Shown one piece after another: positions 23,747-63,951 of a DNA stretch of 64,000 nucleotides. Under the pieces are notes generated by a model, which had not been told where the DNA came from, made no database searches, and saw only the letters and a list, made by a program, of their open reading frames with translations. Each line of letters starts with the position of its first letter. The first letter of the stretch is position 1. Source of the stretch: Siphonodentalium dalli (lineage: Eukaryota > Mollusca > Scaphopoda > Gadilida > Siphonodentaliidae); the NCBI GenBank assembly GCA_032622095.1, contig CP136062.1:51847349-51911348 (forward strand), read 5' to 3'. Both the position numbers and the translations under genes were made by a program.

Positions 23747-25932
23747 ACTGTAAATCAAGCACATTAAAATCGACTTCACCCGAACTGTTCATTCGCTGCG
23801 CAGCGATGGCGGCAAGCTTGATGGCCATTTTATATGGTCCCTGTTTCTTCTTATTGTAGCGTGTTTTGAAATTTTCCAGGAATGGACACAAATCCGTGCT
23901 TTTCAGGTAGGACATAGTTGAAGAGCCGAACCAAGAAACTTGTGATAGCTGTCGACAACTGTTATTTTTATTAGAGGTTATAGCTAAAACTCGTCCAGGC
24001 CACCAGGGTGAGCCGTGAATCTTACCCCAAACGATATCACCTATCAAAACTTTATGACCATCTTTAGAAATGCATGAGGTAACGTCCATATTCTGAACGA
24101 ATTTAACTTTGTATTCTGGAGAATTTCCCGGCGGAGGTTCCGGGTAAATATCACCACTCTCGTCCGTATCTGTGTCGGATGTTCTCTCTTCGCGATAAAG
24201 ACAATCACCAACTATAAACGAAGACGACTCTGACTGATGAGGTGTACTTGATTTAACGTCCTCTGGAAGATCCTTGTGACTGACGTCTTCATCCTTGGAA
24301 GAATAGATCTTTCTAAGTTTTGAATCTAACACACTGTCGGTCTTTTTACTGGAAATGATAATGTTGGAATTATTTGGTTCGCGTCGCGGAGATAATGCCT
24401 TTATTTCCGAGGGATCGCGGCGAGGAGATAAACCTTTATTATGCCTCCACGTATAAAGTAATCGAGGCCTGTGTGACTTTAACTGAGCACTGACTTTTGG
24501 AGGTTCACTGTTCTCAATGCCATTTTTACTGTGGTCACCTGACTCGGACACCTGCAATACAGATGTGAGGCCATTGTGATTTGGTGACGGAATATACCGT
24601 TTCCGCTTATGTTTATGCTTGTGTTTCCTGTGATGTCCCATAACGCTCTGGCGTAATTTATCCTCCATTTGAGTGCAAACATTCTTTTTTTCAGCATGCA
24701 ACTCTGAGCAACGGTCCTCAACTTTATTTGAAGATTTCTCATCAATATTAGAATCGTTTTCATTTGCCTTGCATTCCTTGATCCCATCAGTTGTTGATGT
24801 TGGCAACTCGGAAGACATCCCAGAATTCTCAAAAGTACTAGCACTTTCACTGACATCTGTGTTTTCAGTAGGAATTTTGTCTTCGGAAGAACATTCAGCC
24901 TCGGATCCCTCACTGAAGGAATGCGCACGTGGAGGTATTTTTAGCAACGTAACATCACCAATGGAAATTCTAATCATCGGGCTAGACTTTTGGTTTCCTG
25001 ACGAATATTCTGATTTCAATTTCCTACTTTCGTCTACATCATTTAAAGTAGAATTCTCTGTCTTTATGTCAATATTGGTCTCTGTGCTATCAATTTCATC
25101 ACACACTGCCAGAATATCTTTTTTCCCTGATGCATCCTTATGCTTAGAACTAATATTATTTCTATTTTCCTCTGACTTAGCAGCTTTGAATCTTGCAGAA
25201 CGAGATGGCCTAGAATCATCTGCAGTGTCTGTAGATCTTCCCCGCGCACAACGACTTAGCGGTTTTTTATTATTTGGTTGACTAGATCGCGCATTCCTCG
25301 CTGACTCCGTTAGTCTGTTAACGTTAATTCCAGGTCGATTAGGGGATGTGATACTCCTGCGGAGGTTCCATCTCATACATCGCTGTCTCGATTCACTCAA
25401 ATCGACCTTCGCAATCTTTATTTGAGGTACTACAGTCTGACTATTCTGCAATGGTTTGCGTTTACCGAGATGATTATTAGTTCGATTTGGTGAAGCATAT
25501 CCCTTGTTTGCCGTCGATGACCTTGATGACCGTAATCCCATACTGAGGTTTCTTGCCGATTGTCTAAGTGCAGCAGCTACCTTGTGTTGCATGATGTTAG
25601 AAGTCAGTTTGATAGAATTTTGCCCAGAAATATTTGAATTGTCAATTGGTTTATCAGATTTATCAAACTTTGCAACAGAGACAGGCCCATTTTCTGTGTT
25701 AAGGCATGCCGACTTACAATTAGAACATAGAGTTCGTCGTGGGCGGAGTCGAATATTTCTAAAGTTTTTGTCTCGGATTAGTCTCACTGTTGGTTTACAC
25801 ACAATGTTCTCAGAATTGAAACCACATCGTAGAGTTGTTGCCGGCTCCTGGTTTTTCTGTTCTCCGTTTGCAATGCTTTCTGGGCCATCTTTCTTGTGCA
25901 GAGATGGCCAGCTGACACCATGAGGTATATTC
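23742..25932 (-). CDS. PWWP2A: PWWP2 exon 2 (main exon)
   Basis: 2,191 bp including TAA. The acceptor is a pyrimidine tract ending TTTCTTTTCCCAG, so the exon starts at 25932 rather than at the ATG at 26003. It encodes residues 49-778. The stop codon falls inside the TTTAAA end of an inverted-repeat element at 23356-23746. Confidence 0.93.
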
Positions 25933-28900
25933 CTGGGAAAAGAAATCGAAGGAGTAATATTAAATAAATGTTTCAGTGAATGAAACTGATGAATATAAAC
26001 CAAGCATTTTGCCTACCGAAAGAACGTACATTAATTCCCTAAATAATCAACTCCTTAACCACAGAAGAATTATGGGTAATTTTTCAGGATTTAGTCGGAA
26101 ATATGGCTTATATATATGGTATGGTATATATTGCCAAAAAATCCAATCACACTGGTGTCACCATTTTAAAAACATAATATCCGAACTACGCACAGTTTGG
26201 GGTGGTAGGAAGGTCATTTATGACTATATCACCCCTGACAATATACATGAAATAACAAATAGACATTTTGTCTGAAATAAAGAATAATAATATCTATACA
26301 TGTATGTATTTGTATTTTCATGTGTATATTGCAAATAAAAATAAAAGGTCAGCAGACCACAGTGTCCCCCGAAAAAGTGGCAAGTCGATGCCGCTTTGTT
26401 GAAGAAATTTTTAAAAAATGTTGAAATTTTCTAAGTTGAAAAGGGTTAATAACTCCGTCAAAAGATAATTTTTCCATCATCTATATACATGTTGCACATC
26501 TTCAATATATGGGCAACCATATTCTGAAGTTACAATTCTCTAGGATAAAAACTGTAGGAGGAGTTGATTACACAACGAAGGTACCCTCATACAGAAAATC
26601 TATAATTTTTTTTGAAATTTTCTAAGTCAAAAAGGGTTAATAACTCCGTCAAAAGATAATTTTTCCATCATCTATATACATGTTGCACATCTTCAATATA
26701 TGGGCAACCATATTCTGAAGTTACAAATCTCTAGGATAAAAACTGTAGGAGGAGTTGATTACACAACGAAGGTACCCTCATACAGAAAATTATAAAAAAT
26801 GTTGAAATTTTCTAAGTCGAAAAGGGTTAATAACTCCGTCAAAAAATAATTTTTCCGTCATCTATATACATGTTGCACATCTTCAATATATGTCTGTCAT
26901 TTGCAGAATGAGGTCCCCAGAGGGTGAATTTAGTGATGCTACCCCGCATAGCGGGCTAGCATCACCAAATTCACCCTCAGCAGAATGAGGTCATAGGGTG
27001 AATTTGGTGATGCTAGCCCACTATGCGGGGTAGCATCACTAAATTCACCCTCTGGGGACCTCATTCTGCAAATGACAGACACCCTATTTTCAAGGCTTGA
27101 ATAAGAATACTTTCAGCTTTTTTATGTGAATAAATTATCAAGAAGCTAAATGCACGTAGTGGGTGTGTGTGTTATTGAGGGATACAACGCTGTGGTCGTT
27201 CGGACATATTTAGTATAAACACACACCCGCTACATTCATTTCTTAAATAAAAAGTATGAGCCTGTCAACATTAATTTAAAATTCAGAGTGGAAATAAAAG
27301 TATTGGCATCGAGTTAGTAATCTGAGCTTTCTAAAATTACACAGTGATAACATCAGAGACACCAGATAATCACGATTTTTGGCTTAACTGAATTCCATTA
27401 AGAAAATTTTGCCGTCAGTCATGTTTTTTTGCGAAATGATCCCAAAATAACTCGTTCCCATCTACATGTCAACATCCATGACAAATTTCATGATGATCCA
27501 ACCAAAAGTACGACCTGTAGCCCGAGTCAAATAATTTTGTCGTGCAAAGAGTAAAATCCTACTCTCAGGTGCCTAATAATCGTGATCATACGCTGATGGC
27601 CTAATAATAGTGACGGGTGGGGATTTAGGTTTAAATTAATAATATTGATGGCAATTTCACTCTATGTCTCAATGCCAAATAATAGTGATCGTTGGGAATT
27701 TTCTCCAAAATTAATAATCATGCTGACACTATTATTAGGCATCTGAGAGTACATGTAGATGGCTGCCAACAGCCATGTTTTATGGCCGATTGATCCAAAA
27801 ATGACTCATTCCCATCTACATGTGAATATTAACATCCACGACAAATTTAATGATGATCAGACAAACACTCCGGCCTGTCGCCCGTGATAATGGATTGAAT
27901 TTTAAAATCCAAGATGGCCACTGGCAGCCATTATTTTTGCCGAATGACCTCAAAATGAATGGTTCCATGTAAATGTCAACAGCCATGACAAATTGTACGA
28001 CCTGTAGCCTGTGTCAAAGGAAATAGTCCCATTCAACAGCCATGAGAAATTTCATAATGATCCGACCAAAGGTACGACATGTAGCCCGCTCTAATGGAAA
28101 TTGTTGACGGACGTTTCCATGCACAGTATTGCACACACATGCACACTCACACATGGACGACAGATACCAAGCCATGGCAATAGCTCAAACTTTACAAGTA
28201 AATTTGAGCTAAAAATTTACCAAAAAATGTAGGAATAAAAGCTCGGACAAAATTATGTATTCTGACACAATTTTCCAAATCGAAAAAGGGGGGTAACTCC
28301 ACAAAAATAAAATCTGAAAATTATTACAAAACGACTGAGAAAAACTCAGGACAAATTTGTGTCCATGGACGGACGACGGACGCAAGCTGATTCCAGTATA
28401 CCCACCCCCCAACTTTGTTGTGGGGGTATAAATATAATTCTTTGTGTTAACTTTATAGTAAGTCTTATTTCTCAGTCACGGTCACATTGGATCCATCCAG
28501 CCCAGTTAAGCTGATGGGGTCATTGTCACAAGGCATCGGTCACATTCGTAGCCAGCTTTTTAAATCAATCACAAATGTAGCCAGCTTTTCTGTGGCGATC
28601 ACATTTGTAGCCAGCTTTTCATATTCAGGCGAGCCTCAGTGAACACGATCAGGTTAATATCATTTTTCTGAATTGATGGATGAGCAACAACTTGAATTTT
28701 GTTTTGATATTAGTTCTTCTAATAACCTGAGGTTTCCGAGCAATGTCGTTAGAATGCTCAAATTATATTGCAATATAAGTTGATAAACGAAGTCAGTTTT
28801 GGAGCATGACGTCGACATTTTAGTCACGAACGTGATGACGTCATATTTCGCGCCATATAAAGCATGCAATTAGAAAAGCTGGCTACGAATGTGATCGCCG

Positions 28901-39210: not shown

Positions 39211-39366
39211 TTATTCTTTCTTTGCTTCATCATCATTTGGTTCTGCTTCGAGTTCTCTATAGTTCGGAAAGGTTTCCCATGGTGTGCTGTATTCAAACTT
39301 TCTAAATTCCTGAGTCATTTCTAGAGGTTCATATACTATTCTTTCTAATTCTGTATCCCATCGCAC
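39211..39366 (-). CDS. NDUFS3: NDUFS3 last exon (exon 6)
   Basis: 156 bp including TAA, acceptor TATTTCAG. It encodes [20 protein letters not shown], then [19 protein letters not shown] and an acidic/lysine tail. The [12 protein letters not shown] motif is typical of the C-terminus. I saw no clear AATAAA on the minus strand just beyond the stop. Confidence 0.95.
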   Translation of the reverse strand: MRWDTELERIVYEPLEMTQEFRKFEYSTPWETFPNYRELEAEPNDDEAKKE

Positions 39367-42300
39367 CTGAAATACAGTGTACATCATTTAAGAAATAGTC
39401 ATTTCCTGATGCTGTACAATTAAAATGGTGCTAAATAAAATGAAAGTGTCAATGACACTGTAGCTCAACTTGGAGGAGGTGATAATAATTTTATGCTGAG
39501 CAGTCAATAGAATGATAAAGTACTCAATGTGTGATCAGTGGTGACCAATTAATTTTAGAATAGAAGTACTAGTAGTAAAAGGTCAAAAAGTTTCAGTAAT
39601 TGGATTGTATTGTGTAAATGAAATTATTTTCACTTCAAACATTTCATTGGCGACAGTCTGATGAGGGATGTGGTCTGTATGGATTTAGTCATGCAAAGAG
39701 TAAAATTCCAGATGGCTGCTGGAGGCCATGTTTTTCATTGTAAATCTCTAAAATTTGATAGCTCCCATCTAGAGATCCTAAAAATGCCTGTAAATTTCAA
39801 AACTGCAATAAATGTGGGCTGCAGGGTGTGCCGATGAATACAAATTTGAAATCCAAAATTGCTACTTGTGCCATATTTTTTATTGAATTTCGGAGAAAAT
39901 CAATGGCTCCCATCTAGAGGTCACCCCGAAGATCCATATGAAGAATTATATATGTTATAGTTGAAGATACTCAATCCGATTCGATGGTCCCCATATCATC
40001 AGATTCCAAAAACAACAATTTTTTTTGAAATGCCACTTCAGTTATCAGAATAGATTAATTGCCCAAAAATAATGCTAACAACAGTCAACTATAGTATAAA
40101 ATTGCCTGAAACTTGTTATTTATCAACATTTTGTTCAACGAATTTTTGTCGGATTGTCAAATATCTAACTCCAAGGCCACTTGATTTTAGTTATCCATCT
40201 TCTTCCGCAATTTGGTCTGAGACCGTCAGCTTGACGAATATTTGCCAGGCTGCCAAAAATTACATATCTCGGGAAATAACAAATTTCAAAAATCTGATCA
40301 CTCTGAGCTTTGATGGGTGGGTTCCTCGACTCGAATAAAATTTGTTTACCCCGAAGCCAAAGAAAGAGTAATTTGAGAGCATTAAACCTTGATTATGAAA
40401 TAATCAATTTTATTTTCAAAGCATCGAACTAAATTCAGAACGTTCGGGTGGTACCCCTTTTAGAACAGGATGTACGTTTTATGAACGGACATGCACAGTC
40501 TCTTTGTCCTCCATCAATCGGGAATAGAAAATAGAAATTTTGTGCAAACATAATTCCAATATTTCTTTGATTATCAGGATTCATTTTGACACCCTCCCAC
40601 CCCAATATTATATTAGCAGCTTGAGATTTATGTTTCATCTCACACTAATCTGTCTCTTGAAATTCCAAAACTTTTTATTATGGCTACATATATGTTACCA
40701 CTATTACTAAGGCAATAGCTAGATTATTGATGCTAGGTATGTTTATGGAACATTGTTATATATCAGCAGGTGGGAGGGCGGTTATTGGCCTCCACCTTCT
40801 TGACAATATATTTTGTTTAAGTTATTATTGGTTGTTTATGTTTATATTAATAAACAGACCAATTGAATCTGAACTACAGTGTTTGTTGTCAATGAACAAG
40901 CTCATCCTCCGAGTTCCCCTCTTGTCCCTATACATAGTCATTGAGATTCTGAAGAACATTAATTTGGATTATGCATCTTTAAGTTATTACCTCAACATAT
41001 CCTGTGAGTGGGAAGTCCTTTCTCATAGGATGTCCTTCAAATCCATAATCTGTTAGTATGCGTCTCAGATCAGGATGATTGGAGAAGAAAACTCCATACA
41101 TGTCCCATATCTGTGGAGGAAAAATAAGACTGTAACCAGGGTTCACCCTTCCACTTGCCAAAGGCAATATACTATTTTTATTTTGACAAAACAAATTTAA
41201 TTGGGAAAAACATATTGGCAAGTGGGTTTATAATTCTGTGATGTGAATGATTAAGTGGGTTTATAATTCTGTGTGGTGAATGATCCAGCCAGAAAACAGC
41301 ATCTACAGTAATGCTCAAAGTAATTGACCACTTAACAACAGCAGAATTATGGGTAATTTTTCAGGATTTAGTCCTGAAAAATTACCCATAATTCTGCTGT
41401 GGTTAAGCGGTCAATTACTTTGGGAATTACTGTAAATTTTTTGTCTTTAGTAGTGAATAAACACTGGCATGACTAGTAATGTTAACCTTAACCCAATCTG
41501 TACTAAATACTCATTGACAAGTAGTTCCCCTAGGAAATGTTCAGATATATATCGTGAAAGAATATGAATCTTCAACACTTGTATTATTTTTTGGTCAGAC
41601 TGTCGTCTGATAAATTTTCCTGAATACCCCTCCAAATGAATAATAGACCATTCCAATGTATATTTTTATAACTTAGTGGGAGAACCCATTAAGTATAGAA
41701 AGGTTTAACCCTTTGAGTGCCAGGTCCGATTTTTGTATCAACCCATATACCCTGTGCCAATGCATTCTATTATATATGCGAGTCGACCATAGGTCGCCTC
41801 GCATATATAACAGAATGCATTGGCCTAACAATTTTTCATCATTTGTTATTATTTTTTACAATTTTAATAATTTTTCTTAGTGCCAGAGAATCTTACGTTT
41901 TTCATGGGCATCAAAATTATTACTATGAATACTTGGTGATAGTTTTGAGTTGTAACACGCCCCTATGGTTTTATCCAGTTTGTTTTTAAATTCGCTATGG
42001 CATGCTTAAGCATACCCAAAAAAAATTCAACCAAAAAAAAAAAAAATCTAAGAAATAAAAATACAATTTTTGTTTTAATTTTTAAAATTTTTTTAGGGCC
42101 GATTTTACAGAGCGTAAATTAAGGCCGATGAGAGCGGCCCCTGGCACTCAAAGAGTTAAAGCAATTTTCAACAACTATAAAAACTATGTTTTTCTAATCT
42201 AACTTCCAAGCCGTAAATGGAAACAATTGCCAAGAGATAGCTCATGATACTCACCTCGCGCTCATACCAGTTTGCTCCAGCAAAGATGCCGCATAATGAA

Positions 42301-45300
42301 TCAATAGGTGTGAGTTCGTCAGTGTACGTCTTCACCTTAATTCTTGCATTATGTGTTATCGACAAGAATATATAAACAAGCTGAAATTAGAAGAGACATA
42401 GGTGTGAGTTCATCAGTGTATGTCATCACATTAATTCTGTCATCACATTAATGACCAGGTCAGTTTAACAGTGACAGGATTCTTACCAGAGAGGAACATG
42501 ACCAGGTCAGTTTAACAGTGACAGGATTCCTACCAGAGAGGACCCTGACCAGGTCGGTTTAACAGTGACAGGATTCTTACCAGAGAGGACCCTGACCAGG
42601 TCAGTTTAACAGTGACAGGATTCTTACCAGAGAGGAACATGACCAGGTCGGTTTAACAGTGACAGGATTCTTACCAGAGAGGACCCTGACCAGGTCGGTT
42701 TAACAGTGACAGGATTCTTACCAGAGAGGACCCTGACCAGGTCAGTTTAACAGTGACATGATTCTTACCAGAGAGGACCCTGACCAGGTCGGTTTAACAG
42801 TGACAGGATTCTTACCAGAGAGGAACATGACCAGGTCAGTTTAACAGTGACAGGATTCTTACCAGAGAGGACCCTGACCAGGTCAGTTTAACAGTGACAG
42901 GATTCTTACCAGAGAGGAACATGACCAGGTCAGTTTAACAGTGACAGGATTCTTACCAGAGAGGAACATGACCAGGTCGGTTTAACAGTGACAGGATTCT
43001 TACCAGAGAGGACCCTGACCAGGTCAGTTTAACAGGGACAGGATTCTTACCAGAGAGGAACATGACCAGGTCAGTTTAACAGTGACAGGATTCTTACCAG
43101 AGAGGAACATGACCAGGTCAGTTTAACAGTGACAGGATTCTTACCAGAGAGGAACATGACCAGATCGGTTTAACAGGGACAGGATTCTTACCAGAGAGGA
43201 CCCTGACCAGGTCGGTTTAACAGTGACAGGATTCTTACCAGAGAGGAACATGACCAGGTCAGTTTAACAGTGACAGGATTCTTACCAGAGAGGAACATGA
43301 CCAGGTCGGTTTAACAGTGACAGGATTCTTACCAGAGAGGACCCTGACCAGGTCGGTTTAACAGTGACAGGATTCTTACCAGAGAGGACCCTCACCAGGC
43401 GGTTTAACAGTGACAGGATTCTTACCAGAGAGGAACATGACCAGGTCAGTTTAACAGTGACAGGATTCTTACCAGAGAGGAACATGACCAGGTCAGTTTA
43501 ACAGTGACAGGATTCTTACCAGAGAGGACCCTGACCAGGTCGGTTTAACAGTGACAGGATTCTTACCAGAGAGGAACATGACCAGGTCAGTTTAACAGTG
43601 ACAGGATTCTTACCAGAGAGGAACATGACCAGGTCGGTTTAACAGGGACAGGATTCTTACCAGAGAGGACCCTGACCAGGTCGGTTTAACAGTGACAGGA
43701 TTCTTACCAGAGAGGAACATGACCAGGTCAGTTTAACAGTGACAGGATTCTTACCAGAGAGGAACATGACCAGGTCGGTTTAACAGTGACAGGATTCTTA
43801 CCAGAGAGGACCCTGACCAGGTCGGTTTAACAGTGACAGGATTCTTACCAGAGAGGAACATGACCAGGTCGGTTTAACAGTGACAGGATTCTTACCAGAG
43901 AGGAACATGACCAGGTCGGTTTAACAGTGACAGGATTCTTACCAGAGAGGAACATGACCAGGTCGGTTTAACAGTGACAGGATTCTTACCAGAGAGGACC
44001 CTGACCAGGTCGGTTTAACAGTGACAGGATTCTTACCAGAGAGGAACATGACCAGGTCGGTTTAACAGTGACAGGATTCTTACCAGAGAGGAACATGACC
44101 AGGTCGGTTTAACAGTGACAGGATTCTTACCAGAGAGGAACATGACCAGGTCGGTTTAACAGTGACAGGATTCTTACCAGAGAGGACCCTGACCAGGTCG
44201 GTTTAACAGTGACAGGATTCTTACCAGAGAGGAACATGACCAGGTCGGTTTAACAGTGACAGGATTCTTACCAGAGAGGAACATGATCAGGTCAGTTTAA
44301 CAGTGACATGATTCTTACCAGAGAGGAACATGACCAGGTCGGTTTAACAGTGACAGGATTCTTACCAGAGAGGAACATGACCAGGTCGGTTTAACAGTGA
44401 CAGGATTCTTACCAGAGAGGACCCTGACCAGGTCAGTTTAACAGTGACAGGATTCTTACCAGAGAGGACCCTGACCAGGTCGGTTTAACAGTGACAGGAT
44501 TCTTACCAGAGAGGAACATGACCAGGTCGGTTTAACAGTGACAGGATTCTTACCAGAGAGGACCCTGACCAGGTCGGTTTAACAGTGACAGGATTCTTAC
44601 CAGAGAGGAACATGACCAGGTCAGTTTAACAGTGACATGATTCTTACCAGAGAGGAACATGACCAGGTCAGTTTAACAGTGACAGGATTCTTACCAGAGA
44701 GGACCCTGACCAGGTCAGTTTAACAGTGACAGGATTCTTACCAGAGAGGACCCTGACCAGGTCAGTTTAACAGTGACAGGATTCTTAGCAGAGAGGAACA
44801 TGATCAGGTCGGTTTAACAGTGACAGGATTCTTACCAGAGAGGACCCTGACCAGGTCGGTTTAACAGTGACAGGATTCTTACCAGAGAGGAACATGACCA
44901 GGTCAGTTTAACAGTGACATGATTCTTACCAGAGAGGAACATGACCAGGTCAGTTTAACAGTGACAGGATTCTTACCAGAGAGGACCCTGACCAGGTCAG
45001 TTTAACAGTGACAGGATTCTTACCAGAGAGGACCCTGACCAGGTCAGTTTAACAGTGACAGGATTCTTAGCAGAGAGGAACATGATCAGGTCGGTTTAAC
45101 AGTGACAGGATTCTTACCAGAGAGGACCCTGACCAGGTCAGTTTAACAGTGACAGGATTCTTACCAGAGAGGACCCTGACCAGGTCAGTTTAACAGTGAC
45201 AGGATTCTTACCAGAGAGGAACATTGACCAGGTCGGTTTAACAGTGACAGGATTCTTACCAGAGAGGAACATGACCAGGTCGGTTTAACAGTGACAGGAT

Positions 45301-48300
45301 TCTTACCAGAGAGGAACATTGACCAGGTCGGTTTAACAGTGACAGGATTCTTACCAGAGAGGAACATGACCAGGTCGGTTTAACAGTGACAGGATTCTTA
45401 CCAGAGAGGAACATGACCAGGTCGGTTTAACAGTGACAGGATTCTTACCAGAGAGGACCCTGACCAGGTCGGTTTAACAGTGACAGGATTCTTACCAGAG
45501 AGGAACATTGACCAGGTCGGTTTAACAGTGACAGGATTCTTACCAGAGAGGAACATTGACCAGGTCGGTTTAACAGTGACAGGATTCTTACTAGAGAGGA
45601 ACATGACCAGGTCGGTTTAACAGTGACAGGATTCTTACCAGAGAGGACCCTGACCAGGTCGGTTTAACAGTGACAGGATTCTTACCAGAGAGGACCCTGA
45701 CCAGGTCGGTTTAACAGTGACAGGATTCTTACCAGAGAGGAACATGACCAGGATGGTTTAACAGTGACAGGATTCTTACCAGAGAGGAACATGACCAGGT
45801 CAGTTTAACAGTGACAGGATTCTTACCAGAGAGGAACATGACCAGGATGGTTTAACAGTGACAGGATTCTTACCAGAGAGGACCCTGACCAGGTCAGTTT
45901 AACAGTGACAGGATTCTTACCAGAGAGGAACATGACCAGGATGGTTTAACAGTGACAGGATTCTTACCAGAGAGGAACATGACCAGGTCAGTTTAACAGT
46001 GACAGGATTCTTACCAGAGAGGAACATGACCAGGTCGGTTTAACAGTGACAGGATTCTTACCAGAGAGGAACATTGACCAGGTCAGTTTAACAGTGACAG
46101 GATTCTTACCAGAGAGGAACATGACCAGGTCAGTTTAACAGTGACAGGATTCTTACCAGAGAGGACCCTCACCAGGTCGGTTTAACAGTGACAGGATTCT
46201 TACCAGAGAGGACCCTGACCAGGCGGTTTAACAGTGACAGGATTCTTACCAGAGAGGACCCTGACCAGGTCGGTTTAACAGTGACAGGATTCTTACCAGA
46301 GAGGACCCTGACCAGGCGGTTTAACAGTGACAGGATTCTTACCAGAGAGGAACATGACCAGGTCGGTTTAACAGTGACAGGATTCTTACCAGAGAGGAAC
46401 ATGACCAGGCGGTTTAACAGTGACACGATTCTTACCAGAGAGGAACATGACCAGGTCGGTTTAACAGGGACAGGATTCTTACCAGAGAGGAACATGACCA
46501 GGTCGGTTTAACAGTGACAGGATTCTTACCAGAGATGAACATGACCAGGTCGGTTTAACAGTGACAGGATTCTTACCAGAGAGGAACATGACCAGGTCGG
46601 TTTAACAGTGACAGGATTCTTACCTCGAACCTGTGTTCCCGGGTCGGCATGTCACAGGCCGTGATATCGATGATGTTAGTGAACTGTGAGTTATGATTGT
46701 CTTTGAGAAAAGTCACCACAGGGATGAGTCCGTCAGGATGGATCATCACATCCAGTTCATTTCCGTGAGTAACAACAACTTTCTGGACGTATTTTGGTAA
46801 ACAGTCTGCCACAAACTGGCCATAATCAGTTAGTGTCTGTCGTAGAACAGGATTCTGTGGAGCAATGGTTGCTGGAAAATAATGTGAAATGTTAAAGTCC
46901 CATATAATGTTTAAAGTTTGAATGGTGTGAGATATACCTTGGCCTGTCTTGTACTATTTGTACTTTGAGGACAAATAACTAGTTTGTGATTGTGTTAGTT
47001 TTTCACTTGCTGATGATTATCGAATTAACGCTATATAAATTCCGGGCAAGGATAGAGGCAATTTTTGTCATATCGGAGACTATAAATTACATGCATATTT
47101 AACCCTTTCAGTGCCAAGTCCGATTTTTGTAACAAACCCATATTTCCTTGATCATTTTTCAAATTTATTGATTATAATAATGTGATACATTGATGGAAAT
47201 AGCTCTAAGAGCTCTTTCCATCAATGTATCACATTATTATAATCAATAAATTTGAAAAATGATCCAGGAAATATGGGTTGATACAAAAATTGGACATGGC
47301 ACTGAAAGGGTTAAAACATTTCTGGTGATATTCCAATGATAAACCATTGTCTGTGTAATAAAAAATACCACATGAGGTATCTTCGATTTTGAACGTGTGT
47401 AAGGATTGTGTGGGAAAGTCCCCCCCCCCCCCCCCCCGAAAATACCAGGACATTATTGTTGTTATTGTCATTATTATACTGCATATTAAATGTCTGAATA
47501 TGTCCCATGTATATAGTGTCAATAAAGAATTTAAAATAAAACAAGGGGTACGCATCTAAGATGCTATGTCGAGTTTATTGGCAGTCGAAAAAAACTTCTC
47601 TAAATCAGTTAATATTTAATTGAGTTATCGCGCTAACAGTGAAAAACATGCTAAAAATAGACAAACTAAGGTCCATAACTCTGGGGGAAAATTTGGACAA
47701 ACCTGGTTTTCGAACTCATCCGAGATATTGTTGCAAGAGACCCATATATCAAATATGGTTTGAATCAGTTAATATTTGATTGAGTTATCGCGCTAACAGT
47801 GAACAAAATGCTAAAAATAGACAAACTAAGGCACATAACTCCGGGGAAAAATTCGGACCAACCTGGTTTTCAAACTCGTCTGAGATATTGTTGCAAGAGA
47901 CTTATATACCAAGTATGGTTTGAATCAGTTAATATTTAATTGAGTTACCGCGTTAGCAGTGAAAAAAATGCTAAAAATAGACAAACTAAGGCCCATAATT
48001 TCGGGGAAAAAATTCGGACGAACCTGGTTTTCGAACTCGTCCGAGATATTGTTGCAAGAGATTCATATATCAAATATGGTTTAAATCAGTTAATATTTGA
48101 TTGAGTTATCGCGCTAACAGGTGATAAAATTGCAAAAAAGTCATCAAAGATGGATAACTCTTGTCAAAAAGTTCGGACGTGACCCATTTTCTACAGGCAG
48201 TAAATAGTCATTGGAGGCAACTCACATACCAAAATGTTTTTGAATCCGTTAACAAATGTCTAAGTTATAAGGCATTCTTTAGGTCCGCCTGCCCGCCCGC

Positions 48301-51300: not shown

Positions 51301-54300
51301 TGCTTCAGCAAATGGCTTCGGCATTACTGATTGCCGTAGCAAATTATGAGGACTGTATAATTGGGGAAATAAATTAACATTATTTTATTTGTTGACGTAC
51401 CAAAACATTTTCCCATTTTGAGAACAATAATCTTTGACTCTATTTTCAAACAAAGCGAGATATATATTTATTGATGTTCGCCAACATGTGCTCAGCCGGT
51501 AACGAGTTAACGAAGTTGTCCAGTTTGTTTTGGTCATTCTAACTGGGTCAATAATGCGCCGTCTGAACGATGTTCAAGGCAATCGTAACGATAAGCTTGT
51601 GTGATCTTATTCACACAACTGATTTTGCATTGGTATAACTCGCTTGACACGGCGGTCAAGCCTCACTCTACTCTTGAAGTTCCGCGTTGTATCCCCCCCA
51701 TCCACCCCATGATTGGGGGATGCTTATAACACTATAATATTCATCATTTCATGTCTTATTTGTTATATGACTGATCATCTGCGAACGATATCTATCGCTA
51801 CACTTCACGTTTGTCCATTAAAGTTTTCATTTAACATCATGCATTCGTTGTAGATATTCCATAATTTATGTTCATTCGAGCTGCAAGCAGAGTTAGAACA
51901 TAAAACTCTAACTTGTATTTGCGTTGCAATGATGTGCGATAGATTCTAGGAGAAAAAGGAGGAAAGACATATTGTGTCAATCATTTGCAGAATGAGGTCC
52001 CCAGAGGGTGAATTTAGTGACACTCTCCCTATGGGAGACTTGCATATACATGTATAAGAGAATGCATTGGCACAGCATTTTTGCAAAATTTCAGGAAGCT
52101 CCAGTCATGGAAGGGTTAACAAGAGGTACGCTGTCGTGTGGCATTTGCCCCCCGACCGTAGCAATTCGGATTAAGCATGGTCCGGAAACCCAAAAACAAT
52201 CATCACTTCTAGAAATTCCGGAAACCCAAAAACAAGCGATCCGGAAACCCAAAAAGAAGCGAAAATTCAAATTTTCTTAAGTTGAAAAAAGGGCCATAAC
52301 TCTGGCAAAAATCATCAGATCATACCCAAATTCGCACTTGACATGTATTTTCATATAACTGATCCACAACAATACGGGATTTGCAATCGTACCACCAAAG
52401 CTCACGCTATCATCTGGAAACCAAAAAAACGAGAAAAATTGAATTTTCTAAGTAAAAAAATGGCCATAACTCTGGTGAAAATGGGTGGACGAAACCCGCG
52501 CTATGCATGTAGCTGTTCCCCCATGCTGCTCTATCACCATACCAAATATCAGCTAAATCTGCCCAGCAGTTGCTGAACAATAATGCAAAATGTTTGTACG
52601 GACAGACAAACATTGAATTTTCTAAGTAAATGAAAGTGTCAATGACACTGTAGCTCAACTTAGGTAGGGGAATAATTTAATGGTTGACAGTAAATGGAGG
52701 AATAGGAAAGGTGCTAATTGAAATGTCTAACCTGCGCCAAAGGATTTAGTGATGCAAAGAGTAAAATACAAGATGGCTGCTGGTGGCCATGTTTTTTGGC
52801 CGAACAACTCCAAAATCACTCGTTCCCATCTACATGACAGTGTTAACATCCAAAAGGACTCGTTCCCATCTACGTATAATTGTTAACATCCATGACAAAT
52901 TTTATGAAGATCTGACCTAAGCTACGACCTACAAATTTCATGATGATCAGACGAACAGTACGACCTGTAGACCACGCCAATGGATTGAATTTTGAAATCC
53001 AAGATGGCCGCTGGCAGCCATGTTTTTTAGCCGAATGACCCCACAATGATTCGTTCCCATCTACATGTCAATGTCAACATTCATGACAAATTTCATAAAG
53101 ATTAGACCAAAGGTACAACCTGTAGCCCGTGCCAAAGGATTTAGTCATGCAAAGAGTAAAATCCAAGATGGCTGCTGGCGGCCATGTTTTTTGGCCGAAC
53201 GACTCCAAAATCACTCGTTCCCATCTACATGTCAGTGTTAACATCCATGACAAATTTAATAAAGATCAGACCAAAGGTATGACCTGTAGCCCGCACCAAA
53301 GGATTTAGTCATGCAAAGAGTAAAATCCAAGATGGCTGCTGGCGGTCATGTTTTTTAACCGAATGACCCCAAAACGACTCGATCCCATCTACATGTCATT
53401 GTTATCATTCATGACAAATTTCATGATGATCAGACGAACAGTACGACCTGTGGCCCGCGCCAATGGATTGAATTTTGAAATCCAAGATGGCCACCAGCGG
53501 CCATGTTTTTTGGCCGAATGACCCCACAATGATTTGTTCCCATCTACATGTCAATGTCAACATTCATGACAAATTTTATAAAGATTAGACCAAAGGCAAC
53601 CTATAGCCCGCGCCAAAGGATTTAGTCATGCAAAGAGTAAAATCCAAGATGGCTGCTGGCGGCCATGTTTTTTGGCCGAACGACTCCAAAATCACTCGTT
53701 CCCATCTACATGTCAGTGTTAACATCCATGACAAATTTCATAAACTTCCGACCAACACAACGACCTGTAGCCCGCGCCAAAGGATTTAGTCATGCAAAGA
53801 GTAAAATCCAAGATGGCTGCTGGCAGCAATGTTTTTTGGCCGAACAACCCCAAAATCACTCGTTCCCATCTACATGTCATTATTAACATTAATGACAAAT
53901 TTCATGATGATCAGACGAACAGTACGACCTGTAGCCCGCGCCAATGGATTGAATCTTGAAATCCAAGATGGCTGCCAGCGGCCATGTTTTTTGGCCGAAT
54001 GACCCCAAAATGACTCGTTCCCATCTACATGTCAATGTCAACATTCATGACAAATTTCATAAAGATCAGACCAAAGGTACGACCTGTAGCCCGCGCCAAA
54101 GGATTTAGTCATGCAAATAGTAAAATCCAAGATGGCTGCTGGCGGCCATGTTTTTCAGCCGAACGACCCCAAAATCACTCGTTCCCATCTACATGTCATT
54201 GTTAACATCCATGACAAATTTCATGATGTTCCGATCAAAGCTACGACCTGTAGCCCGCGCCAAAGGATTTAGTCATGCAAAGAGTAACATCCAAGATGGC

Positions 54301-56880
54301 TGCTGGTGTCCATGTTTATTGGCCGAACGACCCCAAAATGACTCGTTCCCATCTACATGTCAATATTAACATCCATGACAAATTTCATGATGATCAGACG
54401 AACAGTACTACCTGTAGCCCGCGCCAATGGATTGAATTTTGAAATCTAAGATGGCCGCCAGCCATGTTTTTTGGCCGAACGACACCAAAATCACTCGTTC
54501 CCATCTACATGTCATTATTAACATCAATGAGAAATTTCATGATGATCAGGCGAACAGTACGATCTGTAACCCGCGCCAATGGATTGAATCTTGAAATCCA
54601 AGATGGCTGCCAGCGGCCATGTTTTTTGGCCGAATGACCCCAAAATGACTCGTTCCCGTCTACATGTCAATGTCAACATTCATGACAAATTTCATGATGT
54701 TCCGATCGAAGCTACGACCTGTAGCCCGGGCCAAAGGATTTAGTCATGCAAAGAGTAAAATCCAAGATGGCTGCTGGCGGCCATGTTCATTGGCCAAACG
54801 ACCCCAAAATCACTCGTTCCCATCTACATGTCAATATTAACATTCATGACAAATTTCATGATGATCAGACGAACAGTACGACCTGTAGCCCGAGCCAATG
54901 GATTGAATTTTGAAATCTAAGATGGCCGCCAGCTGCCATGTTTTTTGGCCGAATGACCCCACAATGATTCGTTCCCATCTACATGTCAATGTCAACATTC
55001 ATGACAAATTTCATAAAGATTAGACCAAAGGTACAACCTGTAGCCCGCGCCAAAGGATTTAGTCATGCAAAGAGTAAAATCCAAGATGGCTGCTGGCGGC
55101 CATGTTTTTTGGCCGAACAACTCCAAAATCACTCGTTCCCATCTACATGACAGTGTTAACATCCATGACAAATTTCATAAACTTCCGACCAAAATAACGA
55201 CCTGTAGCTCGCGCCAAAGGATTTAGTCATGCAAAGAGTAAAATCCAAGATGGCTGCTGGCAGCCATGTTTTTTGGCCGAACGACCCCAAAATCACTCGT
55301 TCCCATCTACATGTCATTATTAACATCAATGACAAATTTCATGATGATCAGATGAACAGTACGACCTGTAGGCCGCGCCAATGGATTGAATCTTGAAATC
55401 CAAGATGGCTGCCAGCGGCCATGTTTTTTGGCCGAATGACCCCAAAATGACTCGTTCCCATCTACATGTCAATGTCAACATTCATGACAATTTCATGAAG
55501 ATCAGACCAAAGGTACAACCTGTAGCCCGCGCCAAAGGAAATTGTTGACGGACACACGTACACATGCACACACGGACGACGGACGCCAAACCATGGCAAT
55601 AGCTCAAACTTACAAAAGTAAGTTGAGCTAAAAAAGGCCCATAATTCTGGTGAAAATGGGTGGACGAAAACCCCGCTATGCATGTAGCTGTTCCCCCATG
55701 CTGCTCTATCACCATACCAAATATCAGCTAAATCTGCCCAGCGGTTGCTGAACAAAAATGCAAAATGTTTGGACAGATGGACGGACGTACGTACGGACGG
55801 AGACGTCGACTATATACCCGCCGACTTCAAGTCGGGGGCATAATAACTGAAGTATGTGCGATTGTAAACATTTACTCATTAATCTGGAATGAAATAATTG
55901 TCGATAAACAAACGACTATGATTCCAGAAACAAGAGTCACTGGATATTATCCATATGTTAGAATGACGTTGTGAGCTACAGTACATGTACTAATATGGGA
56001 TATAAGATTTGCGAGAATAACTACATTAGGCATTTTATTTTTTATTACTTGGTTTACGGATTTCCTTGGCTCAAAGGTAGGGAAGGTTGGAGGAAAAATA
56101 ATAAAAATTAAATCTGTATAAATTTTTTTTAATTGAAATTGTCAAAAAATAGGGTCGGGAGAAATACAATATTGGCTGTATAATAATCTCCTCATCTAAA
56201 ACAAGCACGGGCAAATATATTTTTATATTTGGATGTTTCTTTAAAGCATGATATGGATAGATGAAAAAATATCGCCAATATCAGCATCCGCCATGTTGGC
56301 GTTGACATTCAATACCATAAACATCACAGGAGCTTTCACTAAGAGCTTTCCGATGAATGGCAACAAGCCATATTTCTGACTAAATCCTGAAAAATTACCC
56401 ATAATTCTGCTGTGGTTAAGGAGTCGATTATTTAGGGCATTACTCAACAAACATATGGGGTAAATATCATTATCGATACTGAATCCAAAATACTAATGCT
56501 GCCACTCTTTAATTTCAATGTTCCCTGCAACAAGATGAACAGTATATAATGTTCCATCCAAAGGATATACACATATGTAGTCATTTTAAAAGGTAATTGA
56601 AAATTTTATTTTGTCCATGAAAGTTTTTATTATCAATTTACATACAATTAGGAAAAGGCTCAATTACAGATTACTCTATATTACTAAATATATTAGTCAA
56701 TTGAATACAATTACACATTCTGTACAACCCGTAAACATATTCAATGACAACTGTTTAGGTTTGAACTTCTATTAGTCATTATAACAGATTTGATTTCCTT
56801 ACGTTTAATATGTTCAGCATTCTGTGGCACTGTTGATTGGTGGCGGACTGCCTGCAATGATGTTGTTGGTGTAACTTGCC
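39211..56880 (-). CDS. NDUFS3: NADH dehydrogenase (ubiquinone) iron-sulfur protein 3, mitochondrial (5' exon missing)
   Basis: Encodes the 30 kDa subunit of respiratory complex I, part of the matrix arm near the quinone site and needed early in assembly. Five exons join in frame: 56880-56803, 46871-46624, 42380-42255, 41110-40991 and 39366-39211, with GT-AG borders throughout. They give 241 residues before the TAA at 39213-39211. Family hallmarks in order are [57 protein letters not shown] and [17 protein letters not shown] then RKDFPLTGY. Human NDUFS3 is 264 residues as precursor, so what is missing is roughly the N-terminal transit peptide. The first visible exon starts in phase 1, so an upstream exon must exist; I could not find it between 56881 and 64000. 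The introns (9.9, 4.2, 1.1 and 1.6 kb) are full of repeats. Identification is very secure; exon 2 is the least conserved part. Confidence 0.95.
39437..39960. mobile_element. Pearl-like element G2 in NDUFS3 intron 5, right end missing
   Basis: Starts AAATGAAAGTGTCAATGACA with GTAGCTCAACTTGG, as G1 does. Three diverged core units follow (AGATGGCTGCTGGAGGCCAT, GGCTCCCATCTAGAGG). There is no microsatellite or terminal hairpin. Confidence 0.65.
39965..40395. mobile_element. Diverged relative of the 35561 MITE
   Basis: Contains GATACTCAATCCGATTCGAT at the left and TGAGCTTTGATGGGTGGGTT then CCCCGAAGCCAAAGAAAGAG at the right. The 88-codon frame inside is not conserved and is not called a gene. Confidence 0.55.
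40991..41110 (-). CDS. NDUFS3: NDUFS3 exon 5
   Basis: 120 bp, 40 codons in phase 0, acceptor CTCCACAG and donor GAG|GTAATA. It encodes [19 protein letters not shown] and the [20 protein letters not shown] block, the most conserved signature of the family. Confidence 0.97.
41304..41434. mobile_element. TA-flanked palindromic MITE, short, in NDUFS3 intron 4
   Basis: 131 bp. The two arms meet at CAGGATTTAGTCCTG, so the inner part of both arms is missing. Ends TACAGTAATGCTCAAAG and TGGGAATTACTGTA. Confidence 0.8.
41705..42159. mobile_element. TTAA family A MITE, long form, in NDUFS3 intron 4
   Basis: TTAACCCTTTGAGTGCCAGG to CCCCTGGCACTCAAAGAGTT-AA. The G/C change in the left end is matched by the right end, so the terminal pairing is preserved. 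Confidence 0.8.
42255..42380 (-). CDS. NDUFS3: NDUFS3 exon 4
   Basis: 126 bp, exactly 42 codons (phase 0 at both ends), acceptor TTTCAG and donor GAG|GTGAGT. It encodes [20 protein letters not shown] and on to ANWYERE. A decayed partial copy of its middle lies just upstream in intron 3 (42398-42440). Confidence 0.95.
42398..42440 (-). repeat. Partial duplicate of NDUFS3 exon 4 in intron 3
   Basis: About 41 bp repeats the exon 4 segment encoding [13 protein letters not shown] with roughly five substitutions; translated it still reads [12 protein letters not shown]. It lies directly upstream, in transcript order, of the exon 4 acceptor. A CATCACATTAAT motif is further duplicated before the minisatellite begins. 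Confidence 0.75.
42451..46623. repeat. 47-bp minisatellite filling NDUFS3 intron 3, about 89 copies
   Basis: A head-to-tail array of a 47-bp unit, recognisable by GGTTTAACAGTGACAGGATT and CTTACCAGAGAGGAACATGA. It runs from 42451 to the splice donor of NDUFS3 exon 3. Two common variants alternate: AACAT or CCC after GAGAGGA, and AGGTCAG or AGGTCGG. Some units gain or lose one or two bases (ACATTGACC, CCAGGCGG). On the transcribed strand every intact unit reads CTCTCTGGTAAGAATCC, a good 5' splice-site match. The real donor GAG|GTAAGAATCC is the last unit, so the array appears to have grown from the exon border. Confidence 0.97.
46624..46871 (-). CDS. NDUFS3: NDUFS3 exon 3
   Basis: 248 bp, acceptor TTTTCCAG, donor GAG|GTAAGA. 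It encodes from [17 protein letters not shown] through [10 protein letters not shown] to TREHRFE, the N-terminal half of the Complex1_30kDa domain. The donor sequence is the first unit boundary of the large 47-bp repeat array in the following intron. Confidence 0.95.
47099..47314. mobile_element. TTAA family A MITE, short palindromic form, in NDUFS3 intron 2
   Basis: TTAACCCTTTCAGTGCCAAG ... CATGGCACTGAAAGGGTTAA around AGCTCTAAGAGCT; nearly identical to the 13254 copy. Confidence 0.85.
47548..48352. mobile_element. Pearl-like element H, four ~159-bp units
   Basis: Left TGCTATGTCGAGTTTATTGG; right hairpin AGTCGAGTTTTTG / AAAAACTCGACTAAA after CCGCCTGCCCGCCCGCC. The core repeats GAGTTATCGCGCTAACAGTG and ATGCTAAAAATAGACAAACT four times with a period near 159 bp. 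Confidence 0.7.
48820..49345. mobile_element. Pearl-like element I
   Basis: About three units of ~145 bp (AAAAAGGGCCATAACTCC, ACCCATATTCGAACTCGATC), then GACAGACAGACAGACGGACA and the hairpin ATGTTTACCATAC / TATGGTATGGGTAAACAT. The left limit is uncertain. Confidence 0.6.
49390..49510 (+). mobile_element. tRNA-head fragment, second SINE type
   Basis: GAGCCCCATGGTCCAGTGGT then TAGCGCGTTTGAACC resembles a tRNA A-box region, but no matching B box or acceptor stem follows. Probably a SINE remnant. Confidence 0.5.
49525..50745. mobile_element. Pearl-like element J, carrying K
   Basis: Left end has ATACGCCCGTTTCTGG; right end ACCGTTTTTTCAAACGG-GCGTATAAAA after GCGGACGGACGGAC. ACGCCCGTTT and AAACGGGCGT are inverted partners. 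Core: CTCAGTCAAAATCATGCGGA and TATACCAAATTTGGTTCA. It is interrupted by K. Confidence 0.7.
49837..50538. mobile_element. Pearl-like element K, inserted in J
   Basis: Begins AAGGTCCGCCTCTAAGTG and ends with the hairpin AGTCCTCCGAACCCGTT / GGGTCGGCGGACAAAAAG after GGACGGACGGACGGACGC. GTCCGCC and GGCGGAC are inverted. Core units contain ACATACCAACTTTGGTTCAG and AAATGTTAACAGACGG. Confidence 0.7.
50746..51974. other. No gene recognised in NDUFS3 intron 2
   Basis: Mostly unique sequence with no conserved exon or repeat structure I can name. Confidence 0.55.
51975..52119. mobile_element. Chimera of two MITE families
   Basis: 51975-52024 is the left end of the double-palindrome MITE (CATTTGCAGAATGAGGTCCC then GGGTGAATTTAGTGAC). 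From 52028 it becomes the right half of TTAA family B (GGGAGACTTGCATATACATG ... CAGTCATGGAAGGGTTAA). Confidence 0.7.
52120..55846. mobile_element. Pearl-like element L, carrying G1
   Basis: Left end has TTTGCCCCCCGACCG; right end has ACCCGCCGACTTC / AAGTCGGGGGCATAATAA after GGACGGACGTACGTACGG. GCCCCCCGAC and GTCGGGGGC are subterminal inverted repeats. Cores contain GGCCATAACTCTGG and TGCATGTAGCTGTTCCCCC. The element is split by G1 (52625-55632). Confidence 0.7.
52625..55632. mobile_element. Pearl-like element G1 with about 17 core units of ~160 bp
   Basis: Left end AATGAAAGTGTCAATGACAC with TAGCTCAACTTAGG; right end AAACTTACAAAAGTAAG / TTGAGCTAAAAA, so TAGCTCAACTTA and TAAGTTGAGCTA are inverted. 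Each core unit contains CCAAGATGGCTGCTGGCGGC, CATGTTTTTTGGCCGAA, TCGTTCCCATCTACATGTC and CATGACAAATTTCAT. Two half-types alternate, after GGATTTAGTCATGCAAAGAG or after GGATTGAATTTTGAAATCC. Short open frames here are by-products. Confidence 0.85.
56331..56446. mobile_element. TA-flanked MITE, right arm only, in NDUFS3 intron 2
   Basis: AAGAGCTTTCCGATGAATGG through GGAGTCGATTATTTAGGGC to ATTACT. The left arm is missing. Confidence 0.7.
56803..56880 (-). CDS. NDUFS3: NDUFS3 first visible coding exon (exon 2)
   Basis: 78 bp, entered in phase 1 after TATTTACAG and left in phase 1 at the donor GTAAGG. It encodes [16 protein letters not shown] and a few more residues, a poorly conserved stretch matching the segment that follows the transit peptide. 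The frame continues exactly into the next exon through a split proline codon. Confidence 0.8.
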
Positions 56881-62267: not shown

Positions 62268-63951
62268 ATGCCTCCAATTAAGGTGAGTCAGTAGTCTAAA
62301 TAAAAAAGTCCCATGACCAATATGTCCTAAATTTAACCACATCGTTAACAGGCAAGATCCCTTAGTTTGCCACGGGTATATTTTTTCTGGTGTCCCATGT
62401 GGGGTGGGGCAAGTTAACTGGTGTGTGCCTATGGGGAAGTTCTGTCCAATTTTTTTGGTGTCCTATGTGGGGGTGGGGCAAGTTAACTGGCATGTGCCCA
62501 TGGGGAAGTTCTGCCCAATTTTTGTTGGTGTCCTATGTGGGGGTGGGGCAAGTTAACTGGCATGTGCCTATGGGAAATTCTGCCCAATTTTTTTTTGGTG
62601 TTCTGCTCAAATTTTTTTTCTCTCATGAACTTTAGCTGTTGAACGTGGTAGTTATACCATTTTCACTTTGTATTTCAGAATAAAACACATAAAGAAAAGA
62701 TCAGGAGAAGACATGACTTAAAGAAGATTGATGCTGCATATGACATCGTGCAGAAGGAGGGTGTATCTGTCTACAGAGCCGCCAGGATGTACGGTATCCC
62801 AGAGAGTACGCTACGTGACAGGACATTAGGCCTGGTGAATGCCCATGAAGGTGTTAATCCGGGCCCAGTTCGCTTGTTTACAAACGTTGAAGAGGAGAAG
62901 CTATTTAACCATATTGTTTACATGGGAAATATAGGATATGGATATTCCAGGAAGGAAACTCTGTTAATTGCTTCGGATTATGCAGTTTCACTTGGGAAGT
63001 TATCATCGGACTCACTTATTGGAAAGAAATGGTTCTACAGTTATCTCAGCCGGTGGCCTGGCTTAAAACTGAAAAAGCCACAGAGACTGACCATTTCTAG
63101 GGCAAAGAATTTGTCACCTGACTGTGTAGATAACTATTATAAAGAATTGGAGCAGGTCCTTGACAAATACAACTTTAAACAAAGACCACAGCACATCTAT
63201 AATTTAGATGAAACAGGTACATATACAATCGCTTTGGTCGAATGGGCTCAAGAGAAAAACATCATTCTCTTTGTTCTGCCGCCGCATACCAGCCATATTT
63301 TGCAGCCACTTGATGTTGGATGTTGGATGTTTTGGTCCGTTGAAGAATGTTTACAACAAAGAATGTCAGTTGTTTTTACGGAAAAATCCAGGTCGTGTCA
63401 TTATGAAATATGAAATTTGTAAACTCTCTGGGAAATCTTACATGAGAGGACTGTCTCCTGAGAACCTGCAGTCTGCTTTTAAAGCTACTGGAATTTATCC
63501 TTTTAATGCATCTTCAGTTTCACCAACAGCTGTAGCACCGTCACAAATATACTCTGCAGAAAATATTCATTCACCAGAATCAGATAGCTTCTTTAACTCT
63601 GTTACTATCACAAAAGCCTTGTCTCCAAAACGAAAAGTTAACCGAAGACCTTCTGTTCATGGAAATTTGATGGAAAAAATGGTTGCAAGCTCTATTGAAA
63701 GTGAGCATGAGTATCTTGAGATTGAAGTTGATGTCCATGCAGCTGGCGACATTGAACAGGAACATGTAATAACATCAACCCCATTTATATATATATAATA
63801 AGTATGTACTCAGAGGATAGCGACGTGATGGATGCAGAGAACTGCTGTGTTTGTGGGAAAGATTTTCCAGACTCATCCCCTGATTGCTTTTCGTTAGTTT
63901 ATGTGAAATGGGCAAATTGTGACAAATGTGACCACTGGACACATCTTAACC
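62268..63951 (+). pseudogene. pogo/Tigger-like transposase, disrupted
   Basis: A Tc1/mariner-superfamily DDE transposase relative. Exon 1 (62268-62282) gives MPPIK and ends at GTGAGT; exon 2 starts at 62679 after TATTTCAG with NKTHKEKIRRRHDLKKIDAA. A pipsqueak-type HTH (about residues 12-55, RAARMYGIPESTLRDR) is followed by a CENP-B-type HTH (NVEEEKLFNHIVYMGNIGYG...KKWFYSYLSRWPGL). The DDE domain begins at NLDETG (D182), but the next motif is LVEWAQEKNIILFVLPPHTS then LQPLDVG (D217). D182 and D217 are only 35 residues apart and the expected middle Asp region (DGH.SH) is absent, so the centre was deleted in frame. A 7-bp tandem duplication at 63318-63331 then shifts the frame; the tail (GPLKNVYN, MRGLSPENLQSAFKATGIYP) continues in another frame to a stop at 63798. 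A Cys-rich segment follows from 63804. Not functional as it stands. Confidence 0.85.
62283..62678 (+). repeat. Transposase intron with ~70-bp tandem repeat
   Basis: The 396-bp intron (GTGAGT...TTTCAG) contains about three copies of a unit of roughly 70 bp between 62384 and 62600, recognised by GGTGTCCTATGTGGGGGTGG and GGGGCAAGTTAACTGGCATG. Open frames across it are by-products of the repeat. Confidence 0.75.

What the first reader, a model, noticed from the sequence alone, without database searches (positions are those of the whole stretch)
42451..46626. Minisatellite of ~89 units that grew from, and repeats, a splice donor of NDUFS3
The true exon 3 donor is GAG|GTAAGAATCC. The 47-bp unit on the transcribed strand reads CTCTCTG|GTAAGAATCC, so the array starts at the exon border and nearly every unit carries a donor-like GTAAGA within one 4.2 kb intron of an essential gene. 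Each unit also has a pyrimidine tract (TTCCTCTCT) just before the donor. The array could act as a U1 snRNP sink or decoy array, alter intron 3 retention, or be tolerated because only the first donor has a good exon side (GAG against CTG). The donor content is seen; the functional ideas are inference.
Basis: partly seen in the sequence, partly recalled or inferred. Interest (0 to 1): 0.88.

Follow-up and report, generated by a model that had tools for sequence, protein, structure and literature searches.

The report
Minisatellite grown at an exon-intron border
In this animal's NDUFS3 gene almost a whole intron consists of 89 tandem copies of its own splice-donor sequence, and a small survey of other genes suggests that repeat arrays sitting on exon-intron borders are common in this genome, a phenomenon known mainly from lancelets.

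Summary
NDUFS3 lies on the minus strand. Its "exon 3" ends at 46624 (GAG), and 89 units of a 46-48 bp repeat run from intron base +1 (46623) to 42451, 4,173 of the intron's 4,243 nt. GTAAGA is kept in 86 of 89 units; the unit was found nowhere else in the 2.23-Gb genome. Against 123 donors sampled from this genome, the real donor ranks at the 85th percentile and the common decoy (CTG|GTAAGA, 84 of 89) at the 51st.

The closest known kind is the amphioxus "mirage": tandem duplication of exon-intron boundaries. In 172 sampled exons of kinesin, CCT and myosin genes, 14 carry an array crossing the donor; 1.8 are expected from local intronic arrays, 5.4 if dispersed repeats are counted. NDUFS3 thus looks like a large, donor-only case of a common class, in a host whose myosin resembles molluscan rather than vertebrate myosin.

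Most likely it is spliced out near-neutrally, the first donor being chosen by exon definition. A U1-sink function is untested, and in-frame micro-exons are disfavoured by a poor acceptor score. Acceptor-side enrichment is not shown. No RNA evidence was available. Boundary minisatellites are also reported in human segmental duplications.

The parts
46624..46871 (-). NDUFS3 coding exon upstream of the array ('exon 3'), ends ...MPTREHRFE / GAG
42451..46623 (-). 47-bp minisatellite, 88 full units plus one partial, first base = intron +1; 86 of 89 units keep GTAAGA
42381..46623 (-). NDUFS3 intron, 4,243 nt, of which 4,173 nt are the array
42398..42438 (-). partial copy of exon 4 (37 of 41 identical to 42304-42344), 17 nt upstream of the real exon-4 start: remnant of a duplication at the 3' boundary
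   Evidence: local score 62 against at most 29 in 2000 shuffles
42255..42380 (-). NDUFS3 next coding exon ('exon 4', LVYIFLS...NWYERE); its acceptor scores at the 57th percentile
40991..41110 (-). NDUFS3 following coding exon (IWDMYGVFF...GYVE); borders read by eye
39211..39366 (-). NDUFS3 last coding exon with stop; borders read by eye

Best explanation
This is a mirage-type boundary minisatellite: a tandem expansion anchored at an exon-intron border that is transcribed and removed with the intron. Shown: the register, unit content, genomic uniqueness, and the presence of similar arrays at other donors of this genome. Inferred: the array expanded by slippage, unequal exchange or conversion within the intron. 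Purifying selection stopped it at the coding exon. The first donor is used because exon definition pairs the upstream acceptor with the nearest donor across the exon, helped by its better exon side (GAG against CTG). Use of a decoy would give a frameshift or stop and presumably be degraded, so the array is near-neutral. I put membership of the class at about 0.85 and near-neutrality at about 0.65.
For: The array starts at intron +1. It is local: the 24-mer occurs only here in the genome. A 6-unit block repeats exactly (units 33-38 and 39-44), and mean unit difference is 2.0-2.4 at every lag tested, which fits ongoing turnover. In pooled samples 14 of 172 exons (kinesin 10 of 112, CCT 3 of 42, myosin 1 of 18) carry an array crossing the donor, with units holding an exon end, a GT donor and intron start. 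At score >=100 the number expected from array starts inside introns is 1.78 (local arrays, P 7e-9) or 5.35 (all arrays, P 1.3e-3). One kinesin array has about 39 copies of a 34-mer. Three related copies of one kinesin exon have 14.5, 14.5 and 11.5 units. Amphioxus mirages are reported not to disturb splicing and to be length-unstable (PMC3087553, passages). With large introns, sites closest across the exon are preferred (PMC9225289, abstract).
Against: The NDUFS3 unit has no clear exon part: its 24 nt before the donor match the exon tail at 11 of 24, which 1.7% of window 24-mers also reach. The other 14 arrays have 12-72 nt of exon. Random placement within loci gives a weaker donor excess (14 against 6.8 expected, p 0.001) and no acceptor excess (5 against 5.4). 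With dispersed arrays included and the lowest score cut-off, the donor excess is weaker (P 0.003-0.04). No RNA or population data exist here, and neutrality is not tested directly.
Confidence: 0.7

Rival explanations
1. Functional U1 platform: 84 average-strength decoy donors in the sense strand recruit U1 snRNP and so slow splicing, cause retention, protect the transcript from premature polyadenylation, or regulate NDUFS3 level.
For: Decoys score at the 51st percentile of 123 sampled donors and pair with U1 at -8.0 kcal/mol, against a donor median of -6.4.
Against: Donor columns are not depleted of variants: 3 of 9 vary, against 12 of 39 elsewhere (columns). The intron has no AATAAA or ATTAAA to protect. 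Donor content follows from the origin of the unit, and other boundary arrays show the same at unrelated genes.
Confidence: 0.12
2. Mutational hotspot: transcription or splicing at exon-intron junctions (R-loops, bound U1, base-composition steps) promotes tandem duplication there, so the anchor reflects where arrays are born rather than what they do. This can hold together with the best explanation.
For: Donor-crossing arrays exceed intronic array starts about 8-fold for local arrays and 2.6-fold for all arrays at score >=100. The intron part of the unit is short, median 13.5 nt.
Against: The acceptor side is not in excess under random placement. The position of the donor in the unit differs from uniform only at p 0.03. 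The excess shrinks when dispersed arrays are counted. No mechanism was observed.
Confidence: 0.32
3. Copy of a dispersed satellite or transposon-borne minisatellite that landed at the donor.
For: In the samples, 17 arrays at score >=100 have units with hits at other loci.
Against: The 142-bp query finds only this array and the 24-mer has 89 of 89 matches here.
Confidence: 0.03
4. Array of in-frame 42-nt cassette micro-exons (acceptor in GTAAG, donor at CTG, 14 codons without stop) or of recursive splice sites.
For: The 42-nt stretch is a multiple of 3 and open (read by eye); a pyrimidine tract precedes each donor.
Against: The pseudo-acceptor TTCCTCTCTGGTAAG|A scores -3.1, below all 131 sampled acceptors. 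CTG|GT is not the AG|GT of a recursive site.
Confidence: 0.02
5. Assembly artefact.
For: Long arrays are error-prone in assemblies (recalled).
Against: 22 distinct unit types are interspersed, and similar arrays recur at 14 of 172 sampled exons.
Confidence: 0.03

Closest known systems
Amphioxus 'mirages' (Adh3, globins BflGb6 and BflGb9; PMC3087553, passages read)
   Same: Minisatellite-like tandem duplications at exon-intron borders, on 5' or 3' boundaries, many units carrying AG/GT signals, length-unstable, reported not to disturb regular splicing.
   Different: Here 89 units (6 and 3 in the two BflGb6 haplotypes); no recognisable exon part in the NDUFS3 unit; the host's myosin looks molluscan rather than chordate; in this genome 14 of 172 sampled donors carry such arrays.
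Lancelet PGBD5 splice-site tandem repeats (60 and 108 bp; PMC3902484, passages read)
   Different: Imperfect duplications with few copies; one gene.
Variable internal tandem repeats of human genes in segmental duplications (PMC2812944, passages read)
   Same: Minisatellites, some at exon-intron boundaries, said possibly to cause new introns by activating cryptic splice sites.
   Different: On average 30-bp units repeated 4 times, studied as differences between recent paralogs; no report in the passages of a long array filling an intron from its donor.
[quoted passage not shown] potato, PMC4974935, listing only)
   Same: Tandem duplication that multiplies splice signals inside a gene.
   Different: There the duplication makes a new intron; here an existing intron is filled and no new intron is shown.

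Membership tests
[quoted passage not shown]
   The array abuts the donor exactly, with 1 nt in the exon; possible diverged exon tail, 11 of 24, not convincing. A 3'-boundary remnant is present in the same intron.
Mirage (boundary minisatellite) | Units carry splice signals | tested here: met
   86 of 89 GTAAGA; CTG|GTAAGA at the 51st percentile of donors
Mirage (boundary minisatellite) | Local repeat, not a dispersed family (my criterion) | tested here: met
Mirage (boundary minisatellite) | Unit length 10-160 bp | tested here: met
   46-48 bp; range from PMC3087553
Mirage (boundary minisatellite) | Length instability | tested here: inconclusive
   Seen for a kinesin array in related gene copies, 14.5, 14.5 and 11.5 units; not tested for NDUFS3
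Mirage (boundary minisatellite) | Regular splicing undisturbed | not testable with these tools
   no RNA data
Recursive splice site array | Pyrimidine tract and AG directly before GT | tested here: not met
   CTG|GTAAGA in 84 of 89; the AG inside GTAAG scores below all 131 acceptors
Dispersed satellite | Copies at other loci | tested here: not met
U1 decoy array | U1 binds internal donors and changes splicing or transcript level | not testable with these tools
   only sequence strength scored

The most novel reading that the evidence does not exclude
In this non-chordate animal, exon-intron junctions are hotspots of tandem duplication genome-wide. Roughly one donor in twelve sampled carries a boundary array, some with tens of identical decoy donors lying closer to the acceptor than the real one. 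That makes it a natural, evolving test of exon definition and a steady source of material for new introns and exons.
Probability: 0.37. Interest if true: 0.8.

Novelty: new variant of a known kind. Interest (0 to 1): 0.6.

Why it matters
In the papers I saw, boundary minisatellites were reported gene by gene in lancelets, with related cases in human segmental duplications. If they are common in an unrelated, long-intron genome, they may be a general feature of genomes that use exon definition. They also provide many natural substrates in which near-identical donors compete and mainly position differs, so the rule for donor choice becomes directly testable, as does intron gain by tandem duplication.

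Tried and rejected
Species identity: left open. The genome is 2.23 Gb in 9 contigs. The scorpion Hadrurus arizonensis (2.23 Gb, nine chromosomes, N50 280 Mb; PMC11126328, passages) was considered, but PF00379 gave 0 matches and the contig N50 here is 264 Mb. Chitons were considered (PMC12005716, passages). Mollusc haemocyanin PF14830 gave 0 matches. In neither family search did any control ring, so neither shows absence. A joined muscle-myosin exon pair matches eight PDB sequences at 268-272 bits ahead of Myosin-7 entries at 248. That these eight are scallop and squid is recalled. I read this as mollusc or another spiralian, not chordate.

In-frame micro-exons, recursive splice sites and protection from polyadenylation were considered and found unsupported. 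Unit lengths divisible by 3: 8 of 14, p 0.058, not claimed. An exon-derived tail in the NDUFS3 unit: weak. Acceptor-side excess: 5 observed against 5.4 expected under random placement, not claimed. An impression that donors at arrays are weak (5 of 14 at or below the 12th percentile) was not tested further.

Rows dropped. Kinesin: 112 of 123 matches taken; 11 left out because position and score suggested near-duplicate gene copies. CCT: 42 of 53 taken; 9 left out as apparent duplicates and 2 as long uninterrupted matches. Myosin: 18 of 85 matches fetched, the first 18 of 38 chosen; several of the 18 are the same exon in paralogous genes. Donor reference: 123 of the 158 exons without a donor array gave a donor above threshold, which favours good donors.

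An earlier enrichment figure set 14 arrays, one of which starts 134 bases before the exon-match end, against an expectation for 100 bases. One search uses matching widths, and its figures replace those here.

Literature: searches (one open-access library) gave lancelet reports and, in listings 34 and 58, PMC2812944 on human genes and, in listing 58, PMC2891723 on Drosophila, whose passages I then read. I saw no report of frequent boundary arrays in a non-chordate genome. The original Adh paper was not held, so its content comes from PMC3087553.
Full report
What is there. The gene is NDUFS3 on the minus strand. The Pfam family PF00329 gives two exon matches in the 2.23-Gb genome, both in this window. 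Four coding exons joined give a 215-residue protein whose residues 4-202 align with solved NDUFS3 chains (best chains 324 bits, recalled as insect; human, recalled, 317), with no gap at the join RFE|LVY. The exon therefore ends at 46624, the intron runs 46623-42381 (4,243 nt) and the next exon starts at 42380. This rests on homology, not RNA.

The array. TRF reports 42451-46624, period 47, 88.8 copies. On the transcribed strand there are 88 full units and a 36-nt remainder, starting at intron base +1. Of the 88, 79 are 47 nt, 5 are 48 and 4 are 46. There are 22 unit types; units 33-38 recur exactly as 39-44, and the mean difference between units is 2.0-2.4 at every distance tested. The array fills 4,173 of the 4,243 intron bases. 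GTAAGA is kept in 86 of 89 units and CTG|GTAAGA in 84 of 89. Variable columns are as common in the donor core (3 of 9) as outside it (12 of 39), so there is no sign of selection on the decoys (counted). The sequence is local: a 142-base query found one candidate place, and the 24-mer with up to two mismatches found 89 sites, all here.

The other end. The remaining 70 nt hold a 41-nt partial copy of exon 4 (37 of 41 identical; score 62 against at most 29 in 2000 shuffles), 17 nt before the real exon 4. So sequence from both borders of this intron has been duplicated. In amphioxus, too, both 5' and 3' boundaries can be duplicated (PMC3087553 passages).

Donor strength. From 123 donors in sampled exons without donor arrays I built a species matrix. 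The real donor scores 10.4 (85th percentile), the common decoy 8.28 (51st), and the GTAGGA and CTA variants 5.75 (15th) and 4.99 (6th). U1 pairing is -9.6 for the real donor and -8.0 for the decoy, with a median of -6.4 for the sampled donors. Using the second donor adds 47 nt (a frameshift), and later ones meet an in-frame stop at the unit junction (reading frame). The acceptor-like AG inside units scores -3.1, below all 131 sampled acceptors, so cassette micro-exons are unlikely. The intron has no AATAAA or ATTAAA.

Is it a one-off? I sampled exon matches of three families: 112 of 123 kinesin, 42 of 53 CCT and 18 of 85 myosin matches, with 650 bases downstream of each. Fourteen of 172 exons carry a tandem array crossing the exon's 3' end: kinesin 10, CCT 3, myosin 1. 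Their units hold 12-72 nt of exon, a GT donor and 5-42 nt of intron (medians 34 and 13.5). Thirteen of 14 have at least one decoy within one mismatch of the real 9-mer, and 11 have identical ones. Donor assignments rest on homology and score; those for L063 and L035 are least certain, and 5 of 14 score at or below the 12th percentile. Example: L053 repeats ATGAACCTAGTAGATTTAGCAG|GTAACTATGACT, the kinesin NLVDLAG exon end, in 38.9 copies over 1.3 kb.

Excess over chance. At score >=100, counting array starts within 140 bases before the exon-match end, 14 donor-crossing arrays compare with 1.78 expected from local arrays starting inside introns (P 7e-9), or 5.35 if dispersed repeats are included (P 1.3e-3). 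Within 100 bases it is 13 against 1.27 (P 1e-9) or 3.82 (P 2e-4). Not counting L163 as local gives 13 against 1.53 (P 1e-8) or 5.35 (P 3.5e-3). Over cut-offs 70 to 200 and both widths, P stays at or below 5e-5 for local arrays but runs from 7e-5 to 0.04 with all arrays. A stricter test, placing each local array at random in its own short locus, gives 14 against 6.8 (p 0.001) for donors and 5 against 5.4 for acceptors, so the acceptor side is not shown. L163's unit also matches paralogous exons without arrays, and a similar gene copy (L175) shares the array. L078 and L104 may be two ends of one array. The sample covers three gene families only.

Instability. Three related copies of one kinesin exon (aligned pieces 83-99% identical) have 14.5, 14.5 and 11.5 units, and another set of copies differs strongly in its acceptor-side arrays.

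Host. A joined muscle-myosin exon pair matches eight PDB myosin sequences (recalled as scallop and squid) at 268-272 bits, ahead of Myosin-7 entries at 248. The animal is therefore probably a mollusc or another spiralian and not a cephalochordate. The species is not identified.

Mechanism. [quoted passage not shown] The first donor wins by position and, here, by exon side. Expansion by slippage or unequal exchange is inferred. Whether junctions are mutational hotspots or only places where arrays survive is open.

Compared with what is known. Mirages in lancelets are the nearest kind (PMC3087553 and PMC3902484, passages). [quoted passage not shown]

Verdict. One defining feature, an exon part in the unit, is not clearly met in NDUFS3, so I call it a variant rather than a plain member. 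In the six searches that bear on it I saw no report of frequent boundary arrays in a non-chordate genome; the original Adh paper could not be read.

Noticed in passing
L003-L174 (G000 samples): Tandem arrays crossing exon 3' ends in 14 of 172 sampled exons of kinesin, CCT and myosin genes; a possible genome-wide class.
   Followed up: yes
L182 (G000:C2:63731200-63735773): Kinesin exon end plus donor repeated 38.9 times in 34-bp units over 1.3 kb.
   Followed up: partly
G000 contig C4, about 158-292 Mb: Many muscle-type myosin heavy chain exon matches, including eleven similar-scoring copies of one exon at 274.2-275.5 Mb, suggest a tandem cluster.
   Followed up: no
window 52931-55539: Nested tandem array with periods of about 164, 319 and 483 bp, about 16 copies of the 164-bp unit.
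   Followed up: no
window 62652-63798: Two overlapping open frames that look like a pogo/Tigger-type DDE transposase (recognised by eye).
   Followed up: no
window 23742-26012: 756-residue minus-strand open frame with what looks like a PWWP domain near its end (recognised by eye).
   Followed up: no
window 16556-16741: 18-bp unit repeated about 10 times.
   Followed up: no
G000 C7:133.43 and 133.49 Mb, C8:26.61 and 26.65 Mb, C1:54.10 and 54.27 Mb, C1:68.37 and 68.54 Mb: CCT exon matches occur in pairs of equal or similar score 37-169 kb apart: recent segmental duplications or unmerged haplotypes.
   Followed up: no
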